DNA of 64,000 nucleotides from Verrucosispora sp. NA02020 (GTDB lineage Bacteria; Actinomycetota; Actinomycetes; Mycobacteriales; Micromonosporaceae): contig NZ_CP054923.1 in the NCBI RefSeq assembly GCF_013364215.1, forward strand, positions 1,302,001 to 1,366,000, given 5' to 3'. The first letter of the stretch is position 1. Every line of letters begins with the position of its first letter. Under the pieces are notes generated by a model. It was not told the origin of the DNA, did no database searches, and saw only the letters and a list, made by a program, of their open reading frames with translations. Shown piece after piece: positions 22,725 through 30,577 of this stretch. The translations under genes were made by a program, and so were the position numbers.

Positions 22725-23576
22725 TCAGGGGGCGAGGAGGTGGTGGATGGTGGTGACGATGTGGGTGGGGCGGCGGTAGAGGTCGTCGGCGGTGAAGTAG
22801 CGCATCCGCCAACCCTGACCGGCCAGCCAGTTCGACCGGGAACGGTCGTAGTGCAGGAGCTCCGGGGTCAGGTGGGACTGTCCGTCGTACTCGATGCCGA
22901 TCCGACGCTTGCGGTAGGCCAGGTCGATCCGGTGCAGCGGTATGCCGTACCGGTCGTGCACCCAGAGCTGAGGCTCCGGGGCCGGTAGTCCAGCGTCCAC
23001 GAGAATCAGTCTCAACTGACTCTCCTGCCGGCATTCCGACCGGGGATCCGCCAGGCCGATCAGGTCCCGTGCCTGGCGGGCGTTACGCAGTCCCCGATGG
23101 CGCCCGAGCTCGTCATGGAGATCGTCGCGCCGGCAGGCTGTCGCCCGCAGACAGAGGTCCAGCACCGGAAGGGCTTCTGTCCGCCGGAGTGATCTCGCCA
23201 GATCGACGGCACATCGCGCGGCCGGAGCGCAGGGCAGTCCGCGGATCCGGACGGGATCGCGGACCGGCACGACGGACTCATGCGCCACGACCCCACGGAT
23301 CTGCGGCACGACCGAACCCGCCGGCACGATGACGTGGCACCTGGTCGACCGGGCATCCCCGAAGCCGTGCAGCATCGCACCGGTGTGGAACCCCGCCACC
23401 GCGCCGTCGGGCAGACGTTCGAAGATCGCCCTGAGGTGGTCGTCGGCGGCGGCGGGAGGCCCGTAGACACCTCGGGTCAGCCGAAGCAGTGCCCCCTGTG
23501 CGATCTGCCCCCGCACCTGACCTCGACTCCACCCGGTCGCCAACAACTCGGAGTAACGAATCAGTCGCTCTGTCAT
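22725..23576 (-). CDS. AbiEi/DUF559-like protein with endonuclease-fold C-terminus
   Basis: This 283-residue protein has an N-terminal winged-helix-like region (LIRYSELLATGWSRGQVRGQIAQGALLRLTRGVYGPP) as in AbiEi-type antitoxins. A middle segment (VVPQIRGVVAHESVV) leads to a C-terminal domain, HRIDLAYRKRRIGIEYDGQSHLT ... GWRMRYFTADDLY. The IGIEYDGQSH part matches the DUF559/Vsr-like PD-(D/E)XK nuclease core. Such genes are scattered, often alone, in actinobacteria. No toxin partner lies next to it. ATG at 23576 is used; the frame stays open to 23660. It sits between hairpins C and D. Confidence 0.7.
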   Translation of the reverse strand: MTERLIRYSELLATGWSRGQVRGQIAQGALLRLTRGVYGPPAAADDHLRAIFERLPDGAVAGFHTGAMLHGFGDARSTRCHVIVPAGSVVPQIRGVVAHESVVPVRDPVRIRGLPCAPAARCAVDLARSLRRTEALPVLDLCLRATACRRDDLHDELGRHRGLRNARQARDLIGLADPRSECRQESQLRLILVDAGLPAPEPQLWVHDRYGIPLHRIDLAYRKRRIGIEYDGQSHLTPELLHYDRSRSNWLAGQGWRMRYFTADDLYRRPTHIVTTIHHLLAP

Positions 23577-23666
23577 CTCGCCACTGTCCCGGCCCACCCC
23601 GGCTGCCGTCCGCCCCTGTGGACGACGTACCGGGCCGCTGTGGATAACTCGCGGCCCCACGGCTGT

Positions 23667-24015: not shown

Positions 24016-24681
24016 GTGCGGGTGTTGGTGGCGGACGACGAGCGGCTGCTGGCGGACATGGTCGCCGAGGGCCTCAGGCGGCTCTCGATGGCGGTGGACG
24101 TCTGCTACGACGGTGACGGCGCGTTGGAGCGGATCGGGGTGAACCGCTACGACGTGGCGGTGCTGGACCGGGACATGCCGGGGCACACCGGTGACGAGGT
24201 GTGCCGCAGTCTCGCCGGGTCCGGTTCGGGTACGCGGGTGCTGCTGCTCACCGCCGCCGCCGGCATCCGCGACCGGGTGGAGGGTCTCGGACTCGGGGCC
24301 GACGACTATCTCACCAAGCCGTTCGCCTTCGCCGAACTCGTCGCCCGGGTGCACGCGCTCGGTCGGCGGTCGGCGGCGGCGGTGCCGCCGGTGCTGGAGC
24401 AGCACGGGGTGGCGCTGGACGTGGCCCGGCACTCGGTCACCCGGGACGGCCGGGCGGTCGGCCTGAGCCCGAAGGAGTTCGCCGTACTGCACGTGTTGAT
24501 GCGTGCGGACGGGCGGGTGGTCAGCTCGGAGGAGCTGCTGGAGCAGGCGTGGGACGAGTTCGCCGACCCGTTCACCAACACCGTGCGGGTGACCGTGATG
24601 ACCTTGCGGAAGAAGCTCGGTACGCCTCAGGTGATCCACACCGTGCCTCGGGCCGGTTACCGGATCGGTCCGGCGTCGTGA
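24016..24681 (+). CDS. VanR-like response regulator (OmpR family)
   Basis: This 221-residue regulator has a receiver domain opening VRVLVADDERLLADMVAEGLR, with D7/D8 and phospho-acceptor D51 in the distinctive VLDRDMPGHTGDEV. GADDYLTKPFAFAELVARV follows, then an OmpR-type winged helix with AWDEFADPFTNTVRVTVMTLRKKLG and VIHTVPRAGYRI. The VLDRDxPGxxGDE and AWDExADPFTNxVR signatures are those of streptomycete VanR-type regulators, a class also used for non-glycopeptide signals. GTG at 24016 is preferred since the receiver starts there. The stop overlaps the kinase (GTGA). Target promoters probably include the genes from 25843 on. Confidence 0.85.
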   Translation: MRVLVADDERLLADMVAEGLRRLSMAVDVCYDGDGALERIGVNRYDVAVLDRDMPGHTGDEVCRSLAGSGSGTRVLLLTAAAGIRDRVEGLGLGADDYLTKPFAFAELVARVHALGRRSAAAVPPVLEQHGVALDVARHSVTRDGRAVGLSPKEFAVLHVLMRADGRVVSSEELLEQAWDEFADPFTNTVRVTVMTLRKKLGTPQVIHTVPRAGYRIGPAS

Positions 24682-25736
24682 CCCCGCGTCGCAGGATCGT
24701 GCTGGTCGGCGTGGTCGCCCTGATCGCCGGGTACGCCCTGCCGGGACTGACCGTGTCCGTCACGAGCGAGTTGTGGTGGCGGGTCCGGGGTCTCTGCGAC
24801 AGCGGGCTGTCCGGCAGCGGGCTGGTGTGCGAGCCGGCGCGGGGCCTCGGCGGGGTCGCGCTGTCGCTGCTGGGGCTGGTGGTGTTCCTGCTCGCGGTGG
24901 CGGCGGTCTGGGTCGCTGCGGGCTGGTGTCTGCGACCGGTCCGGGACCTCGCCGGCCCGATCTCGCACGCCGGGCCGCAGAACCTCGGTCACCGGATCCG
25001 GATGCGCGGCAACGACGAGGTGGCCCGGCTGGCCCGGTCGATCGACGAGATGATGGAGCGCATCGCCGCCGGGTACGAGGGGCAACGGCGGTTCGCCGCG
25101 AACGCCTCGCACGAGTTGCGGACGCCGTTGGCCGTGCAGCGCACGCTGATCGAGGTCGGCCTGTCCCGGTCACTCAGCGGCGAGCAGATGGAGCTGGTGG
25201 CCGACCAGCTCTTGGAGACCAACGAGCGCAACGAACGGTTGATCGAGGGGTTGCTCGCGCTCAGCGAGAGCGACCAGGGGCTCCGTTCCCGCCTGCCGCA
25301 GCGCCTCGACGAGATCGTCACGGAGGTGCTGGCCGCGTACCAGGACCGGATCACCGAGGCCGGGGTGACCGTCAGCACCCACCTGGAGCCCCGGACCGTG
25401 ATGGGTGAGCGCGTGCTGCTGGAGCGCCTGGTGACCAACCTGCTGGAGAACGCGATCAAGTACAACCGCCAGGGTGGCGCGATCAGCGTCACCGTCGGCC
25501 GCAACCCGGCGCTGACCGTGGTCAACACCGGTCAGGTGGTGCCGGCCGAGGCGGTGGCCGGGCTCTTCGAGCCGTTCCGCCGGCTGGCGCGGGACCGCAC
25601 CAACCAGAGCGGTGGTGCCGGTCTCGGTCTGGCCATCGCCCGCTCGATCACCCAGGCGCACGACGGACTGATCGCCGCCCGCCCCGCCGAGTACGGCGGA
25701 CTGCGGGTCGACGTCCAGCTTCCGCACGTGCCCTGA
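24678..25736 (+). CDS. VanS-like sensor histidine kinase
   Basis: This 352-residue membrane kinase has a first TM at ~7-27, a short extracytoplasmic loop of about 30 residues with two cysteines (C40, C51), and a second TM at ~58-82. A HAMP region follows, then RFAANASHELRTPLAVQRTLIEVGL with H145, an N-box LVTNLLENAIKYNRQGG and G-box GGAGLGLAIARSI. The short sensor loop recalls Streptomyces VanS, where a comparably small loop is involved in glycopeptide sensing; a membrane-stress input is also possible. It is coupled to the regulator gene by GTGA. There is a 106-bp space before the next gene, enough for a regulated promoter. Confidence 0.85.
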   Translation: MTPRRRIVLVGVVALIAGYALPGLTVSVTSELWWRVRGLCDSGLSGSGLVCEPARGLGGVALSLLGLVVFLLAVAAVWVAAGWCLRPVRDLAGPISHAGPQNLGHRIRMRGNDEVARLARSIDEMMERIAAGYEGQRRFAANASHELRTPLAVQRTLIEVGLSRSLSGEQMELVADQLLETNERNERLIEGLLALSESDQGLRSRLPQRLDEIVTEVLAAYQDRITEAGVTVSTHLEPRTVMGERVLLERLVTNLLENAIKYNRQGGAISVTVGRNPALTVVNTGQVVPAEAVAGLFEPFRRLARDRTNQSGGAGLGLAIARSITQAHDGLIAARPAEYGGLRVDVQLPHVP

Positions 25737-25842
25737 GCCCTTCCGGTCACCACGACCCGATCCACGGGGTCGCACATTCCGCGACGTCCCGTCCCTCGGC
25801 ATGCCCGAAAACGTCACCACCGCGTGGGAGAGGAGCACCCCG

Positions 25843-26991
25843 GTGCGTACCCGTGACCACCTCGCGCCCGTCACCGGCGCCCGCCCGGCCGGCGAACGGT
25901 GGGACTGGGCGGACGTCGCCAAGGGCGGCTGCATCCTGCTGGTCCTGCTCTGGCACGTGATCATGAAGGACTACCTCCAGATCGACTGGCGGCTGGACGT
26001 GCCGGTGGCGGGGGCCTGGGGGACGTTCGGCGAACTGCTGCTGCCGATGCGGATGCCGCTGTTCTTCACCATCTCCGGGATGTTCGCGGCCACCGCGGTG
26101 CAACGGCCGTGGCGGGCCGTCGGCCGTCCGCGCATCGCCAGGTTCCTCTACCTGTACGCGGTCTGGCTGCTGATCCACACCGCCCTGCTGGCCCTCGCGC
26201 CGGACTTCCCGACCGACCGGGCGACCGGCCCGGGGGAACTGCTGGCACAGCTGACGGTCAGCCCGTCCAACCTCTGGTACCTGTACGCGCTGGCGCTCTA
26301 CTTCGTACTCGCCAAGGCGTTGCGCCGGGTCCACCCGGCGCTGCTGCTGGCCGCGGCGGGCGCGCTGAGCGCGGTCGCCGCGGTGGGGCTGCTCGACACC
26401 CCCGGCAACCGGGGCGGGCTCTACCAGAACCTGGTGTTCTTCCTCGCCGGCCTGCACCTGCGTCGCCATGTGCGGCGGTGGTCGGCGGCGGTGACCGGTC
26501 GACGTCTGCTGCTGGCGGTCGGCGGATACCTCGCCGTGCTGGCCGCCGTGCGGGTGACCGGTGCCGGGCGGCTGCCGGGGGTGACGCCGCTGGTCTCGGT
26601 CGTCGCGGTGCTGGCCGGCATCGCCCTGGCGGTGCAACTGGCCCGGTGGCCGCTGGTCCGCGAGCCGCTGGCCGCGCTGGGCCGGCAGACGCTGCCGATC
26701 TATGTGATCCACATGCCGGTGCTGGCCCTCCTGCACCGAATGATCGCCGAGCCCATCGCCGACCTGGGTGACTCCGCCCGGCTCGCGTTGGCCTTCGGCT
26801 ACCCGTTCTCGCTCACCGTCCTGGTGCTGGCGCTCAGCCTCGGCCTGCACCGGGCGCTGCTGGCGGCACGTGCGACCTGGCTGTTCGACCTGCCGGCTCG
26901 CCGATCGCCGATCGAATCGACAAGGGAGACGACATGTTCCACACCGATCCGCCCGAACCCGCCGATCCCGGTCGGCCCTCGGTCGACGTGA
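25843..26991 (+). CDS. Acyltransferase-3-family membrane protein (VanT N-terminal domain-like)
   Basis: This 382-residue protein has about ten transmembrane helices: DVAKGGCILLVLLWHVIM, LPLFFTISGMF-type TM2, FLYLYAVWLLIHTALLAL, LWYLYALALYFVLA, and onward to LPIYVIHMPVLALL and LTVLVLALSLGLHRAL. The DWADVAKG...WHV start is the acyltransferase-3 pattern. The same fold forms the membrane half of VanT serine racemases, where it is linked to L-Ser uptake. GTG at 25843 is chosen for the GAGAGGAG seven bases upstream; ATG at 25801 lacks one. The 3' end overlaps the next gene by 58 bases. A true acyl transfer role is the alternative. Confidence 0.75.
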   Translation: MRTRDHLAPVTGARPAGERWDWADVAKGGCILLVLLWHVIMKDYLQIDWRLDVPVAGAWGTFGELLLPMRMPLFFTISGMFAATAVQRPWRAVGRPRIARFLYLYAVWLLIHTALLALAPDFPTDRATGPGELLAQLTVSPSNLWYLYALALYFVLAKALRRVHPALLLAAAGALSAVAAVGLLDTPGNRGGLYQNLVFFLAGLHLRRHVRRWSAAVTGRRLLLAVGGYLAVLAAVRVTGAGRLPGVTPLVSVVAVLAGIALAVQLARWPLVREPLAALGRQTLPIYVIHMPVLALLHRMIAEPIADLGDSARLALAFGYPFSLTVLVLALSLGLHRALLAARATWLFDLPARRSPIESTRETTCSTPIRPNPPIPVGPRST

Positions 26992-27998
26992 CGGCGGCGG
27001 CGCGGTGGCTCGACGGCCAGGTGCTGCGTACCCCGCTGCTGCGGTCCCCGGTGATCGACCGCCTGGTCGGGGCGCGGGTGCTGCTCAAGGCGGAGAACCT
27101 GCAGACCGGTGGCTCGTACAAGATGCGGGGCGGGTTGTACGCGGTGGGGCGGCTCGCCGCCGCCGGGCACACCGGTGTGGTCGCGCAGAGCACCGGCAAC
27201 CACGCGGTCGCGGTCGCGCTGGCGGCGCGCCGGCACGACATGGCCGCCACGGTGGTGTTGCCGGTCGACGCGACGCCGTCGAAGGTGGCGCGGGCCCGGG
27301 GGGCCGGTGCCCGGGTGGTCCTGGTCGGCTCCACCGTGGAGGAACGGCTGGCGGTCGCGCGCCGGATCAGCGACGAGACCGGTCATCCGATCGTCGACGC
27401 GTACGACCACCCGGACGTGATCTCCGGGCAGGGCAGCGCAAGTCTCGAAATGATCGAGGACGCCGAGCGGGCGGGCACACCGCTGGACACCCTGATCGTG
27501 CCGGTCGGTGGGGGCGGCGGCGTCGCCGGTGCCTGCCTGGCCGCGTCCGACCGGCCCATCGACGTGTACGGCGTGGAGCCGGTCGGCTGCGACTCCCTGG
27601 CGCACAGCCTGGTCGCCGGTCGACCGACGCCGGTCCGGCCGGCGCCGACGATCGCCGACGGGCTGCGGCCGTCCTGCGTCGGCGAACTGCCCTTCGACAT
27701 CCTGCGCACCCGCCTGCGCGGGGTGGTCCGGGTGGACGACGAGGAGATCGCGGCAGCGTTCCGGCTGCTCCTGATGGAGCTGAAGGTGCTGGCCGAGCCC
27801 TCCGGAGCGGCCGGTCTGGCCGGTGCCCTCTGTCTCGCCGCCGACGGCGCGACGCGGGTGGTCGCCGGCACCGCCGCACCGGGCAGCGGCTCTCGACCGC
27901 GCACGGTCGGCGTGGTGCTGACCGGCGGAAACGTGGAAGCGGACCTGGTCGCCCGGCTGGCGACCCCGGTCCTGCCCAGACAAGGAGTGGCGGCATGA
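26934..27998 (+). CDS. Fold-type II PLP enzyme (threonine/serine dehydratase or serine racemase-like)
   Basis: This 354-residue enzyme of the threonine dehydratase/serine racemase family has the PLP lysine K63 in GGSYKMRGG, the AQSTGNHAVAVALAA substrate loop, and phosphate loop PVGGGGGVAGACL. VYGVEPVGCDSLAHSL and LAEPSGAAGLAG follow. There is no C-terminal ACT domain, so it is not biosynthetic IlvA. It starts inside the membrane-protein gene (58-base overlap, GGGAG upstream) and its stop overlaps the D-Ala ligase start. In that setting a serine racemase supplying D-Ser is the attractive reading; a plain catabolic dehydratase is the alternative. Confidence 0.8.
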   Translation: MFHTDPPEPADPGRPSVDVTAAARWLDGQVLRTPLLRSPVIDRLVGARVLLKAENLQTGGSYKMRGGLYAVGRLAAAGHTGVVAQSTGNHAVAVALAARRHDMAATVVLPVDATPSKVARARGAGARVVLVGSTVEERLAVARRISDETGHPIVDAYDHPDVISGQGSASLEMIEDAERAGTPLDTLIVPVGGGGGVAGACLAASDRPIDVYGVEPVGCDSLAHSLVAGRPTPVRPAPTIADGLRPSCVGELPFDILRTRLRGVVRVDDEEIAAAFRLLLMELKVLAEPSGAAGLAGALCLAADGATRVVAGTAAPGSGSRPRTVGVVLTGGNVEADLVARLATPVLPRQGVAA

Positions 27999-29143
27999 GC
28001 GAGCGGGGCGGCGGTATGAGCGCGGAAGTACGGATCGGGGTCCTGTTCGGTGGGCCGTCGGCGGAGCACGACGTCTCCTGCGCCTCGGCGCTCGGGGTGG
28101 CGCGGGCGCTGTCCGGTGGCGGGTACCGGGTCGTCGCCATCGGGGTGACCCGCAGCGGTCGGTTCCGGCTGATGCCGGACGACGTGCTGCGTCAGTTCCT
28201 GGACGGCACCGGCGGGGAACGGGCCATCGACGACCGGTTCACGGTGACCGGCCCGGCCGTGGAGTTGCGGGCGGGGTGGCGGCGTGGCACGGCACTGGTC
28301 ACCGCGGCGGACCCGCCGGGTGCGGTGCAGGCCGAACTGGACGTGGTCTTCCCGGTGCTGCACGGCCCGTTCGGCGAGGACGGTGTGGTGCAGGGGCTGC
28401 TCGAATCGCTCGGTGTGCCGTACGCGGGCTGCGGCATCCTCGCCTCGGCGGTCGGCATGGACAAGGTGGCCATGAAGCGGGCGCTGCGTGCCGAGGGGGT
28501 GCCGGTCACGCCGTACGTCTCCTTCGACGCGTCGACCTACCGGGCCGCCGAGGACCCGGAGAAGCTGGTGGTCGAGCTGCGCCGGCCGCTGTTCGTCAAG
28601 CCGGCCCGGATGGGTTCCTCGATCGGGATCTCCCGGGTGGGTGACGGCGACGACCTGGCGGCGGCGGTGGAGGAGGCGCTGCGGCACGACAACCTGGTCA
28701 TCGTGGAGCAGGGGGTCACCGCGCGGGAACTGGAGTGCGGCGTACTCGGTGGGAGCCACCCGGAGGCGTCGGCGGTCGGTGAGGTCACGGTCAGCGGCGG
28801 CTGGTTCGACTACCGGCAGAAGTACTTCGGCGACAGCGACCCGATGGTGGTCCCCGCCTCGCTGCCGGACGAGGTGACCGAGCGGATCCGGGAGTTGTCG
28901 CTGCGCGCGTTCGCCGCGATCGGCGGCTGGGGGTTGGCCCGGGTCGACTTCCTCTATGACGAGGAAGCCGGCGAGCTGTACGTGAACGAGCTGAACACCA
29001 TGCCCGGCTTCACCGCGCACTCGATGTATCCGAAGGTGTGGGCGGAGAGCGGCGTCGGCTACCGGGAGATCGTGGACCGGCTGGTCGCGTTGGCGGTCAG
29101 CCGGCACGCGGAGCGTCCCGGCGGCACGGGGGAGGCGCCGTGA
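27995..29143 (+). CDS. D-alanine--D-X ligase (Ddl/VanC-type)
   Basis: This 382-residue ATP-grasp ligase has the subsite-1 glutamate in LFGGPSAEHDVSCASA (E24), LHGPFGEDGVVQG, AVGMDK, FVKPARMGSSIGIS, the omega-loop WFDYRQKYFGDSD with K276-Y277, and VNELNTMPGFT. The Lys-Tyr pair argues against D-Lac specificity (VanA/VanB ligases differ there) and for D-Ala or D-Ser in the second position. It is not in the usual housekeeping context next to gpsA. ATG at 27995 has AAGGAG eight bases upstream. The N-terminal MSERGGG looks like an in-frame copy of the mini-ORF cassette; M8 at 28016 is an alternative start. Confidence 0.9.
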   Translation: MSERGGGMSAEVRIGVLFGGPSAEHDVSCASALGVARALSGGGYRVVAIGVTRSGRFRLMPDDVLRQFLDGTGGERAIDDRFTVTGPAVELRAGWRRGTALVTAADPPGAVQAELDVVFPVLHGPFGEDGVVQGLLESLGVPYAGCGILASAVGMDKVAMKRALRAEGVPVTPYVSFDASTYRAAEDPEKLVVELRRPLFVKPARMGSSIGISRVGDGDDLAAAVEEALRHDNLVIVEQGVTARELECGVLGGSHPEASAVGEVTVSGGWFDYRQKYFGDSDPMVVPASLPDEVTERIRELSLRAFAAIGGWGLARVDFLYDEEAGELYVNELNTMPGFTAHSMYPKVWAESGVGYREIVDRLVALAVSRHAERPGGTGEAP

Positions 29144-29775
29144 TCCTGCTCTGCGATCCGCGCGTCGCGGCGGTGCCCGGTGCCGACGACGGCGAGCCTC
29201 TCGTCGACCTGCGCGGGATCCCGGAACTGCGGTTGGACGGGCGGGCGGCCGACCCCGACGGTGCGTACGCGCGACTGCGCAAGGGGGTAATGGAGCGGTT
29301 GCTGGCCGCGCAGGACGCCCTGCCAGACGGGCTCCGCCTGCTGGTGATCGAGGGGTACCGGCCGTACCGGTCGCAGTGGGAGATCTTCACCGGCTACCAC
29401 GACGAGCTGCGGCGGGCGCATCCTGACTGGTCGCCGGAGCGGGTGTACGAGGAGACCACGAAGTTCGTCTCACCGGTCGAGGTGGCGCCGCACAGCACCG
29501 GTGGTGCGGTGGACCTGACGCTCTGCACCGCCGACGGGGTGGAGGTCGACATGGGTACGGCGGTCGACGCCACCCCGGAGGCGAGCGGGAACGCCTGCTT
29601 CACCGCCGCGCCGACGATCGGTGCTCTGGCCCGCCGGAACCGTCGCATCCTGGTCGACGCGTTGACCGGCGTGGGCCTGGTCAACTACCCGACCGAGTGG
29701 TGGCACTGGTCGTACGGCGACCGCTACTGGGCACTGCTGACCGGAGCGCCGCACACCTGCTACGGACCGGTGTGA
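29140..29775 (+). CDS. VanX-like D-Ala-D-Ala dipeptidase
   Basis: This 211-residue cytoplasmic zinc peptidase of the VanX/DdpX family has all active-site residues in place: R74 in IEGYRPYRSQW, zinc ligands H118 and D125 in PHSTGGAVDLTL (SxHxxGxAxD-type), general base E186 and zinc ligand H189 in EWWHWSYGD. No signal peptide is present, as in VanX, which hydrolyses D-Ala-D-Ala before it can be used. GTG at 29140 overlaps the ligase stop. Together with a ligase making D-Ala-D-X this would remove the normal dipeptide, the logic of glycopeptide resistance. A role in dipeptide recycling is possible. Confidence 0.88.
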   Translation: MILLCDPRVAAVPGADDGEPLVDLRGIPELRLDGRAADPDGAYARLRKGVMERLLAAQDALPDGLRLLVIEGYRPYRSQWEIFTGYHDELRRAHPDWSPERVYEETTKFVSPVEVAPHSTGGAVDLTLCTADGVEVDMGTAVDATPEASGNACFTAAPTIGALARRNRRILVDALTGVGLVNYPTEWWHWSYGDRYWALLTGAPHTCYGPV

Positions 29776-29896: not shown

Positions 29897-30577
29897 GTGA
29901 GGCTGCAACGGAAGCACGTGTTGGCGGCGGGGGTGGCGGTGGTCGCCGCGGCGACCGTGGCGGTGGGCACCGGGCTCGGGTTCGCCGACAGCGGCCCGGC
30001 CGGGCAGAGCGCCTGCTCCGGCTCGATCACATTCTCGGCGGAGGGCGGCGAACCGGGCGCCACCAGCGACCGGTTCCCGGTCGGCACCCGGTTGCGGGTG
30101 ACCAACCTGGACAACGACAGGTCGGCGGAGGTGACCGTGGTCGGCCCCTCCGGCAGCTGTGTGCTGCTCAACTCCGCCGCGATGGAACTGGTCCGCGAGC
30201 CGGGTCGGAACGTCATCCGGCGCAACCTCGTCGAGCGGCTGGACGGCCCGGCGGCACGGCCGGACACCGTAGCGCCGAGCGGGCCCGCCGACCGGCCCGG
30301 CTCGTTCTCCCCGCCGGCCGCCCGACCCGGTACGGCGTCGGCCTGCCCGGGCCCGATCACCTTCTTCGAGGAGGCGGCCGGACCGGGCGCCACCAGCGAC
30401 CGGTTCCCGGTCGGCACCCGGTTGCGGGTCACCAACCTGGACAACGACCGGGCGACCACGGTGACGGTGACCGGCCCGTCGGCGAGCTGCGTGCTGCTCA
30501 ACTCCGCCGCGATGGAGCAGATCCGCGAGCCGGGCAAGAACCTCGTCCGCAACAACGTCGTCGAGGTGTTGCGCTGA
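29897..30577 (+). CDS. Secreted protein with two tandem RlpA/DPBB-like repeats
   Basis: This 226-residue protein has a signal peptide (KHVLAAGVAVVAAATVAVGTGLGFADS) and then two ~75-residue repeats (about 40-115 and 150-226). Each reads ITF...PGATSDRFPVGTRLRVTNLDNDR, then SCVLLNSAAME and REPG(R/K)N. The VGTRLRVTNLDN...VTV...LLNSAAM pattern resembles the double-psi beta-barrel of RlpA/expansin-like proteins, suggesting cell-wall or glycan binding. The usual catalytic aspartate of RlpA is not evident. A Pro/Ala linker joins the repeats. GTG at 29897 has GGGAGG upstream. The repeats are nearly identical at DNA level, so the duplication is recent. Confidence 0.7.
   Translation: MRLQRKHVLAAGVAVVAAATVAVGTGLGFADSGPAGQSACSGSITFSAEGGEPGATSDRFPVGTRLRVTNLDNDRSAEVTVVGPSGSCVLLNSAAMELVREPGRNVIRRNLVERLDGPAARPDTVAPSGPADRPGSFSPPAARPGTASACPGPITFFEEAAGPGATSDRFPVGTRLRVTNLDNDRATTVTVTGPSASCVLLNSAAMEQIREPGKNLVRNNVVEVLR

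What the first reader, a model, noticed from the sequence alone, without database searches (positions are those of the whole stretch)
24016..29775. VanC/E/G-like module with a split, replaced VanT
Six tightly packed genes encode a VanR/VanS-like pair, a ten-TM acyltransferase-3-family protein like the membrane half of VanT, a fold-type II serine racemase/dehydratase-like enzyme, a Ddl-type ligase with a Lys-Tyr omega loop, and a VanX-like dipeptidase with all catalytic residues. Known D-Ser resistance operons use VanT, a fusion of that membrane domain with an alanine-racemase-type domain. Here the racemase role could be filled by a separate, unrelated PLP enzyme. There is no vanH, so a D-Lac route is unlikely. 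The combined function is inferred from gene content and order.
Basis: partly seen in the sequence, partly recalled or inferred. Interest (0 to 1): 0.88.

Follow-up and report, generated by a model that had tools for sequence, protein, structure and literature searches.

The report
Cell-wall cassette with unrelated racemase-like enzyme
A known but untested group of soil-bacterium genes that probably changes the end of cell-wall building blocks appears to use an enzyme unrelated to the classic vancomycin-resistance racemase in the same job, sometimes in one reading frame with the same kind of membrane protein.

Summary
The six genes are real, at the stated coordinates, and form a discrete module. 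It is not unknown: Andreo-Vidal et al. 2021 (PMC8698665) described PALP + Ddl + VanX-like + VanRS in Micromonospora as the 'pdx operon' and suggested D-Ala-D-Ser-like remodelling; the passages I read do not mention the acyltransferase gene. Added here: (1) the acyltransferase-3 gene is accessory (separate in 11 genomes including the window, in one reading frame with PALP in 10, damaged in 2, not found in about 32); the joined form has VanT's layout with an unrelated PLP domain. (2) Sister operons carry alanine-racemase-type enzymes in the PALP slot, with His (20 of 21) or Asn (1, VanT's residue) instead of the alanine-racemase Tyr, and ligases with Gln at the DdlB Leu282 column; in one genus PALP itself pairs with a Gln ligase. 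So PALP and a possible serine racemase look interchangeable. Best reading: a precursor-remodelling cassette whose PALP makes a D-amino acid, probably D-Ser. No activity is shown. New variant of a known kind.

The parts
24016..24681 (+). R: OmpR-family response regulator, nearest NCBIfam model VanR-O (261.7 bits, below its cut-off of 505)
   Evidence: 86-95% identical in same-genus operons
24678..25736 (+). S: sensor histidine kinase (HAMP, HisKA, HATPase_c); VanS-O model 152.2 bits against a cut-off of 720, second to a heavy-metal sensor model (165.8 against 292.55)
25801..26991 (+). T: stand-alone acyltransferase-3 membrane protein with K-X10-H and FFxISG motifs; accessory gene, in one reading frame with PALP in 10 other species
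26934..27998 (+). P: fold-type II PLP enzyme (PALP) of an operon-specific subfamily (GSYK ... STGNH ... EPxGCDS); proposed D-amino-acid racemase
27995..29143 (+). D: second Ddl-type ligase with Ser/Tyr/Met at the DdlB 150/216/282 columns
29140..29775 (+). X: M15 VanX-like D,D-dipeptidase with all five catalytic/zinc residues
26922..26936 (+). AAGGGAG ribosome-binding-type sequence and ATG of PALP inside the end of T; a similar internal start is kept in frame in the joined T-P forms

Best explanation
The module is a pdx operon: a two-component-controlled cassette that changes the last residue of peptidoglycan precursors. The VanR/VanS-like pair senses cell-wall stress (inferred). PALP converts an L-amino acid, most likely L-serine, to the D form (inferred). 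The ligase couples D-Ala to it, or tolerates it once D-Ala-D-Ala is removed (inferred). The VanX-like enzyme hydrolyses D-Ala-D-Ala (inferred from residues). The acyltransferase-3 protein is the same kind of optional membrane partner that VanT carries as its N-terminal domain; its role is unsettled there too. Shown here: conserved gene order, PALP and alanine-racemase-type enzymes in one slot, the latter with a VanT-like or other non-Tyr residue at the specificity position, acyltransferase-PALP reading frames, and operon-specific PALP active-site residues. Not shown: any enzyme activity or resistance.
For: Slot exchange: T-Alr-Ddl-X in L114 and L115; Alr-Ddl-MurG-like-X in L101, L102, L111, L116, L117; Alr-Ddl-X in L119; X-Alr-Ddl in L090, L092, L094-L097, L100, L104, L121 (17 of the 40 X-homolog stretches L085-L124), and in L168 (=L102), L171, L174 and L236. 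These enzymes have His in 20 of 21 loci and Asn in 1 (L114) at the Tyr354 column, where the own-genome Alr has Tyr. PMC3485190 (passages) says that Tyr is strictly conserved in alanine racemases and that the serine racemase VanT has Asn. Their ligases have Gln at the Leu282 column, and PALP pairs with ligases of that clade in L089, L223, L225 and L226. T and PALP form one stop-free frame in 10 species, spacing 144, 147 or 195 nt, all multiples of three. PALP keeps the Schiff-base Lys and a hydroxyl (Thr) at the re-face position; human S84T still racemises L-Ser about 10-fold less well, S84A does not (PMC6424897 passages).
Against: All 54 window-type ligase rows keep Ser/Tyr/Met, and the window's ligase passes D-Ala-D-Ala models. 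PMC7691350 (passages) says Ser150/Tyr216 mark ligases that make only D-Ala-D-Ala; the Gln-kind ligases keep both residues too, so by that criterion neither kind is a D-Ser ligase, and the importance of column 282 is recalled from VanC2 work, from no call. A D-Ala-D-Ala ligase beside a D-Ala-D-Ala dipeptidase would be a futile pair. PALP lacks the aspartate of the serine-racemase Mg site. Thr at the re-face position is shared with five non-operon relatives. PALP's best NCBIfam matches are ammonia-lyases, all 25 shown (of 40) below cut-off. Foldseek ranks threonine deaminase and serine racemase about equally. His, found in 20 of 21 sister racemases, is not VanT's residue. No activity data were seen. 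I lowered this confidence slightly (0.5 to 0.45) on re-checking, because the Gln ligases also keep Ser150/Tyr216.
Confidence: 0.45

Rival explanations
1. PALP is a serine/threonine dehydratase, the ligase makes ordinary D-Ala-D-Ala and X recycles it. The operon is a stress-inducible turnover or repair set for normal precursors, not a terminus-changing system.
For: Ligase residues like the second Ddl and D-Ala-D-Ala models passed; ligase clade beside that Ddl, though the placement is open; PALP's best NCBIfam matches are ammonia-lyases; serine-racemase Mg aspartate missing.
Against: Does not explain why PALP and Alr-type enzymes with His/Asn occupy one slot, or why PALP also pairs with Gln-kind ligases. 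Operon PALPs keep a hydroxyl at the re-face position, where the IlvA-type enzyme 8y1j and the paralog L050 have Ala; but the threonine deaminase 1ve5 has Ser there, so this is weak.
Confidence: 0.28
2. PALP is a racemase but for another amino acid (for example Thr, Ala or Asp), and the operon makes D-Ala followed by that residue, or extra D-Ala.
For: Fold-type II racemases for aspartate exist (5ybw is a match). His instead of Asn in 20 of 21 sister racemases is not the known serine residue. The Met ligases suit a small nonpolar second residue (inference).
Against: Asn, the VanT residue, in L114; no positive evidence for any other substrate.
Confidence: 0.17
3. The acyltransferase-3 gene has its own job (acylating a cell-wall or surface glycan) and is linked to the operon only because both belong to the same stress response; the joined frame is a by-product of missing stops. 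This can hold together with any of the other readings.
For: T keeps the K-X10-H motif thought to bind acyl-CoA. T is found directly with X and no PALP or ligase in L110, L122 (=L170) and L172, and without any of these genes nearby in other families. A strong internal start for PALP is kept in all 10 joined forms.
Against: T recurs beside PALP, Alr-type and X genes in several genera. Spacing changes in the joined clade keep frame. The same kind of domain is fused to the racemase in VanT (PMC12423673 passages).
Confidence: 0.35

Closest known systems
pdx operon of Micromonosporales (Andreo-Vidal et al. 2021, PMC8698665)
   Same: PALP + Ddl-like + VanX-like genes with a VanRS-like pair, mostly in Micromonospora; D-Ala-D-Ser-like remodelling already suggested there
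   Different: The passages and section read do not mention the acyltransferase-3 gene, the joined frame, the PALP/Alr exchange, or the Met/Gln and Tyr/His/Asn residues; figures and supplements were not seen
VanC/E/G/L/N D-Ala-D-Ser operons with VanT
   Same: Two-component pair, ligase, M15 peptidase, PLP enzyme, acyltransferase-3 domain; in 10 relatives acyltransferase and PLP enzyme share one reading frame in the same order as VanT
   Different: Fold-type II instead of fold-type III PLP enzyme; ligase matches D-Ala-D-Ala, not D-Ser, models; VanX-like enzyme; acyltransferase dispensable
Alr-type sister operons (T-)Alr-Ddl(Gln)-X in Micromonosporaceae and alr-ddl fusion genes on Streptomyces plasmids
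   Same: Same slot, same X family, same T family in L114/L115; the 2021 paper notes alanine/aspartate-racemase + ddl + vanY sets in other orders
   Different: Fold-type III racemase with His or Asn, ligase with Gln; a MurG-like gene in five of the fetched loci
vanHAX D-Ala-D-Lac operons
   Same: Ligase-VanX order and VanRS control
   Different: No vanH in the module; ligase has the omega-loop Lys-Tyr pair, and Met where VanA has Arg
Fold-type II serine racemases and threonine deaminases (1ve5, 1v71, 5cvc, TdcB 2gn0)
   Same: Fold, Schiff-base Lys
   Different: Thr at the re-face position, Tyr before the Lys, Cys-Asp-Ser in place of the Mg-site motif

Membership tests
pdx operon (PMC8698665) | PALP, Ddl-like and VanX-like genes in a row with a VanRS-like pair, in Micromonosporales | tested here: met
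   named relatives are Micromonospora; definition read
VanC/E/G D-Ala-D-Ser operon | D-Ala:D-Ser ligase | tested here: not met
   VanG model 277.2 of 495 bits, D_ala_D_ser 245.2 of 520, D-Ala-D-Ala models passed; Ser/Tyr/Met columns. That VanC2 has Phe250/Arg322 is recalled, from no call. Activity not testable here.
VanC/E/G D-Ala-D-Ser operon | VanT: acyltransferase-3 domain fused to an alanine-racemase-type serine racemase | tested here: not met
   T has one NCBIfam match, NolL; no VanT model among the 25 of 40 matches shown for P; P is PF00291
VanC/E/G D-Ala-D-Ser operon | D,D-peptidase removing D-Ala-D-Ala | tested here: inconclusive
   Catalytic residues all present but the VanX model gives 43.8 of 320 bits
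VanC/E/G D-Ala-D-Ser operon | Precursors ending in D-Ala-D-Ser and glycopeptide resistance | not testable with these tools
   needs precursor mass spectrometry and susceptibility tests
vanHAX D-Ala-D-Lac operon | VanH lactate dehydrogenase and a VanA-type ligase | tested here: not met
   none of six proteins is a dehydrogenase; the D-Lac ligase models shown are below cut-off
Fold-type II serine racemase | Schiff-base Lys and a re-face hydroxyl acid | tested here: met
   Lys invariant; Thr in all 55 operon rows and in all 10 joined forms; human S84T retains some racemisation. Non-operon relatives have Thr too.
Fold-type II serine racemase | Mg-binding site with Glu and Asp | tested here: not met
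   Glu kept, Asp replaced by Ser in operon PALPs; site identity recalled
Fold-type II serine racemase | Racemisation of L-Ser | not testable with these tools
   enzyme assay needed
Threonine/serine dehydratase | Curated family model above cut-off | tested here: not met
   all 25 of 40 matches shown are below cut-off, the best being ammonia-lyase models; this does not exclude dehydratase activity
Acyltransferase-3 (TmAT) family | PF01757 domain with R/K-X10-H motif | tested here: met
   1.2e-30; K/R-X10-H in 38 of 39 aligned rows, the 39th being started late by my gene caller

The most novel reading that the evidence does not exclude
VanT has been assembled twice: the same kind of membrane acyltransferase-3 module works with a fold-type III racemase in VanT and split-VanT operons, and with an unrelated fold-type II racemase in Micromonospora, where the two can be translated as one protein. 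Micromonosporaceae swap the two racemase folds in otherwise similar D-Ala-D-X operons, so the membrane domain serves the pathway rather than the racemase fold.
Probability: 0.38. Interest if true: 0.8.

Novelty: new variant of a known kind. Interest (0 to 1): 0.6.

Why it matters
The function of VanT's membrane domain is an open question: PMC12423673 (passages) notes that high-level resistance mutations fall in it. A natural set of operons in which that kind of domain is joined, separate, damaged or absent next to an unrelated PLP enzyme makes the question testable by comparison and by deletion in harmless soil bacteria. It would also add a second racemase fold to the known routes of precursor remodelling and give residue markers for telling such operons apart.

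Tried and rejected
Considered and rejected: (1) D-Lac route: no vanH in the module, ligase not VanA-like. (2) T as a specific VanT relative: no VanT model hit; by blastp it does not match the acyltransferase gene beside the Streptomyces alr-ddl fusion gene (E about 1). (3) The secreted 226-aa gene at 29897-30577 as a seventh member: it also occurs in genomes without the module. (4) Fold comparison to choose racemase or dehydratase: ties. (5) Own-genome VanT-CELN search: one match, below cut-off, the Tyr-type alanine racemase L125. (6) PDB sequence search with T: no match. (7) Two plasmid hits labelled 'vanT' (H49, H52): H49 lies among genes with no van function in their annotation, H52's stretch is unannotated apart from that label. 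Papers on VanT (PMC4542195, DOI 10.1128/mBio.00806-15) and VanG (PMC3488035) are not held, so statements about VanG and VanC residues beyond one search are recalled, as is the human numbering of serine racemase that I laid on aligned maize and Dictyostelium enzymes.

Rows dropped and damage seen: non-operon PALP relatives were left out of the T counts (kept as contrast). Joined loci whose ORF was filed under T are missing from the PALP table; one search gives the signature of all 10 joined forms. Alr proteins called shorter than 300 aa (L097) and the later-fetched L236 are missing from the table; one search shows His in both. Ligases called shorter than 250 aa (L100) are missing. L047 and the two-contig genome G028 (L043, L044) were left out of the PALP tree. 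PALP reads in two frames in L142, L145 and L160, Ddl in L142, X in L031 and, from the split gene calls, in L117 and L120: sequencing error or decay, not followed. Gene starts come from my own simple gene caller, which mis-started some T and P genes. Several loci are one genome fetched twice; distinct counts are. For one search I used 37 chosen ligases and for 55 chosen X proteins. The family and class searches draw evenly from larger groups. The 40 X-homolog stretches were picked by me for variety out of the 177 of 300 genomes with a match.
Full report
What is there. Six genes lie between 24016 and 29775 on the + strand exactly as described: response regulator, histidine kinase, acyltransferase-3 membrane protein (T), fold-type II PLP enzyme (PALP, P), Ddl-type ligase (D) and M15 VanX-like dipeptidase (X). 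The genes overlap or nearly touch. The flanks carry arginase-family, saccharopine-dehydrogenase-like, class III aminotransferase and aldehyde dehydrogenase genes, which suggests polyamine/GABA metabolism. In three congeners without the module (L242-L244; 3 of 5 stretches fetched) the DUF559-type gene on its left and the secreted-protein gene on its right are adjacent, so R to X is one discrete unit. The genus is Micromonospora: contigs of the unnamed same-genus genomes G007 and G005 have the lengths of M. phaseoli and M. craterilacus contigs, and the named loci closest in X are Micromonospora and Verrucosispora plus one 'Micromonosporaceae bacterium'.

Prior art. Andreo-Vidal et al. 2021 (PMC8698665; passages, the Micromonosporales section) call PALP + Ddl + VanX-like with a VanRS-like pair the 'pdx operon', find it often in Micromonospora, place its ligases as a distinct clade among housekeeping Ddl clades, and suggest D-Ala-D-Ser-like remodelling, untested. 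In its text 'acyltransferase' occurs once, in a reference, and 'membrane protein' not at all; 'VanT' was counted 0 times in a search listing. I did not see figures or supplements. A search for 'pdx operon' with VanX or Micromonospora listed 13 papers, of which only this one holds 'pdx operon'; a second search showed no follow-up among its 8 listings. Only openly licensed papers are held.

Conservation. The PALP ortholog (74% identity or more) is in 25 of 37 same-genus genomes, own included (my count). Of the 24 others fetched, 21 show R-S-(T)-P-D-X in order (X reads in two frames in one, L031), one lacks D (M. chokoriensis, L040 = L141), and two are cut by contig ends. dN/dS is below 1 for every gene in the six pairs tried, T (four pairs) 0.29-0.54, the rest 0.06-0.47. 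Operon PALPs also occur in other genera of the family: P-D-X in L106, L109, L123, L124; P-X without D in L105 and L159 (= L222, Couchioplanes); P-D without X in L224 and L227.

The acyltransferase is accessory and sometimes joined to PALP. Among genomes with an operon PALP, T is a separate gene in 11 (window included), in one reading frame with P in 10, damaged in 2, and not found nearby in about 32 (one search lists 33 loci, two of which, L043 and L044, are one genome). In the joined forms one stop-free frame carries PF01757 followed by PF00291 (9 of the 10 scanned). The spacing between fixed points in T and P is 144, 147 or 195 nt, always a multiple of three, while in the window and the nine separate forms measured it is not (the tenth, L160, was not measured). 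An internal ATG with an AAGGAG-type site is kept in frame in all 10, so both a joined protein and free PALP may be made; if T is translated in these species, the joined protein follows. On the PALP tree the 9 joined forms included fall in one 14-row group (SH-aLRT 95) together with 4 rows without T and one with a damaged T; loss inside the group is the simplest reading, which the tree alone cannot prove. The order, membrane domain then PLP domain, is that of VanT, whose membrane domain has no settled function (PMC9558356 passages; PMC12423673 passages). T keeps the K-X10-H motif.

The slot is shared with alanine-racemase-type enzymes. X homologs occur in 177 of 300 genomes of the family at E 1e-6 or better. 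Of 40 such stretches picked for variety, 17 have an Alr-type enzyme beside ligase and X: T-Alr-Ddl-X in L114 and L115, Alr-Ddl-MurG-like-X in L101, L102, L111, L116, L117, Alr-Ddl-X in L119, and X-Alr-Ddl with another type of kinase and regulator (domains scanned in L092) in L090, L092, L094-L097, L100, L104, L121; 6 have PALP beside or one gene from X; L110 and L122 have T and X only; in L120 a Gln ligase stands beside a split X; the rest have neither enzyme beside X. L168 (= L102), L171 and L174 add named cases, and L236 one from another order. T in L115 is 67% identical to the window's T and X is 71% identical. Genome G305 carries both kinds (L115 and L227). The Alr-type enzymes have His at the Tyr354 column in 20 of 21 loci and Asn in one (L114); the own-genome alanine racemase has Tyr. 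The column is Tyr364 of the M. tuberculosis enzyme 1xfc by the alignment, which PMC3485190 (passages) equates with Tyr354, calls strictly conserved in alanine racemases and important for specificity, and says is Asn in VanT. The alr-ddl fusion gene of a Streptomyces plasmid (L129) also has His and, in its printed sequence, Gln in the ligase half.

The ligases fall in two kinds. At the DdlB columns Ser150/Tyr216/Leu282, all 54 window-type rows are Ser/Tyr/Met, like the own-genome second Ddl; all 21 rows of the other kind are Ser/Tyr/Gln; VanA has Arg at the third (distinct sequences 46 Met including the second Ddl, 20 Gln). PMC7691350 (passages) links Ser150 and Tyr216 to D-Ala-D-Ala-only ligases, so by that criterion both kinds look alike; that column 282 decides D-Ser use in VanC2 is recalled. 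PALP pairs with the Met kind in Micromonospora and others, but with the Gln kind in genus g53 (L089, L223, L225, L226); the tree puts these with the Alr-operon ligases (SH-aLRT 90) and apart from the window's clade (99) (a short-search tree in which long branches are flagged). The same PALP signature is found with both kinds.

The PALP subfamily. Operon PALPs share Tyr before the Schiff-base Lys, Thr at the re-face position and Cys-Asp-Ser after the conserved Glu (54 rows; one more, L124, has Asn for Cys; the 10 joined forms agree); five non-operon relatives at 45-51% have Phe, Thr, Val-Pro-Ala; the serine racemases 1v71, 5cvc and 6lut and the threonine deaminase 1ve5 have Phe, Ser and a final Asp. 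A Lys and an Arg that I take for hSR K114 and R135 (numbering recalled) are aligned in the operon rows shown. Human S84T is the only S84 mutant studied that keeps L-Ser racemisation, ten-fold reduced, whereas S84A loses it (PMC6424897 passages). So Thr fits racemisation but does not prove it; the lost Mg-site Asp speaks against a classical serine racemase. The predicted structure is confident (mean pLDDT 90.6) but matches threonine deaminase and serine racemase about equally.

Reading. PALP and a possible serine racemase fill one slot, next to the same X and T families, and with the same ligase clade in one genus. That is the best available evidence that PALP supplies a D-amino acid, most likely D-Ser, to a precursor-remodelling route. 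The window's own ligase argues for caution: by models and residues it is a D-Ala-D-Ala ligase. One way to reconcile them, inferred only, is that with D-Ala-D-Ala removed by X and D-Ser supplied by PALP even a promiscuous Ddl would make D-Ala-D-Ser, which would also explain lineages that keep P and X but not D. The plainer alternative is a turnover operon without any change of terminus.

Noticed in passing
29897-30577 (+): Secreted-type 226-aa protein with two similar internal repeats (seen in the sequence), directly downstream of X; also present in genomes without the module, so a neighbour rather than a member
   Followed up: yes
22725-23597 (-): DUF559/REase_MTES_1575 protein with a weak AbiEi-type N-terminal match, the left border gene of the module
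   Followed up: partly
L110, L122 (=L170), L172: Acyltransferase-3 gene next to a VanX-like gene as a pair, with no PALP, racemase or ligase beside it (Asanoa and a relative)
   Followed up: partly
L101, L102, L111, L116, L117: A MurG-like glycosyltransferase gene sits between ligase and VanX-like gene in these Alr-type operons
   Followed up: partly
L126, L129 (Streptomyces plasmids): Alanine racemase and Ddl-type ligase in one gene (L129 by blastp, L126 by the span of the annotated gene); in L129 followed by an acyltransferase gene unrelated in sequence to the window's
   Followed up: partly
L176-L210: VanX-like relatives without a PALP, Alr-type or Ddl gene beside them occur in Streptomyces and Streptosporangiaceae; of the few neighbours inspected by eye, some look like AfsR/SARP-type or ROK-type regulators
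   Followed up: partly
L087, L093, L103: Three VanX-like proteins outside the operons have Gln instead of the catalytic Glu181
   Followed up: no
L032, L033, L031, L142, L145, L160: T is a remnant (L032) or frameshifted (L033), X reads in two frames in L031, PALP in L142, L145 and L160: decay or sequencing error
   Followed up: no
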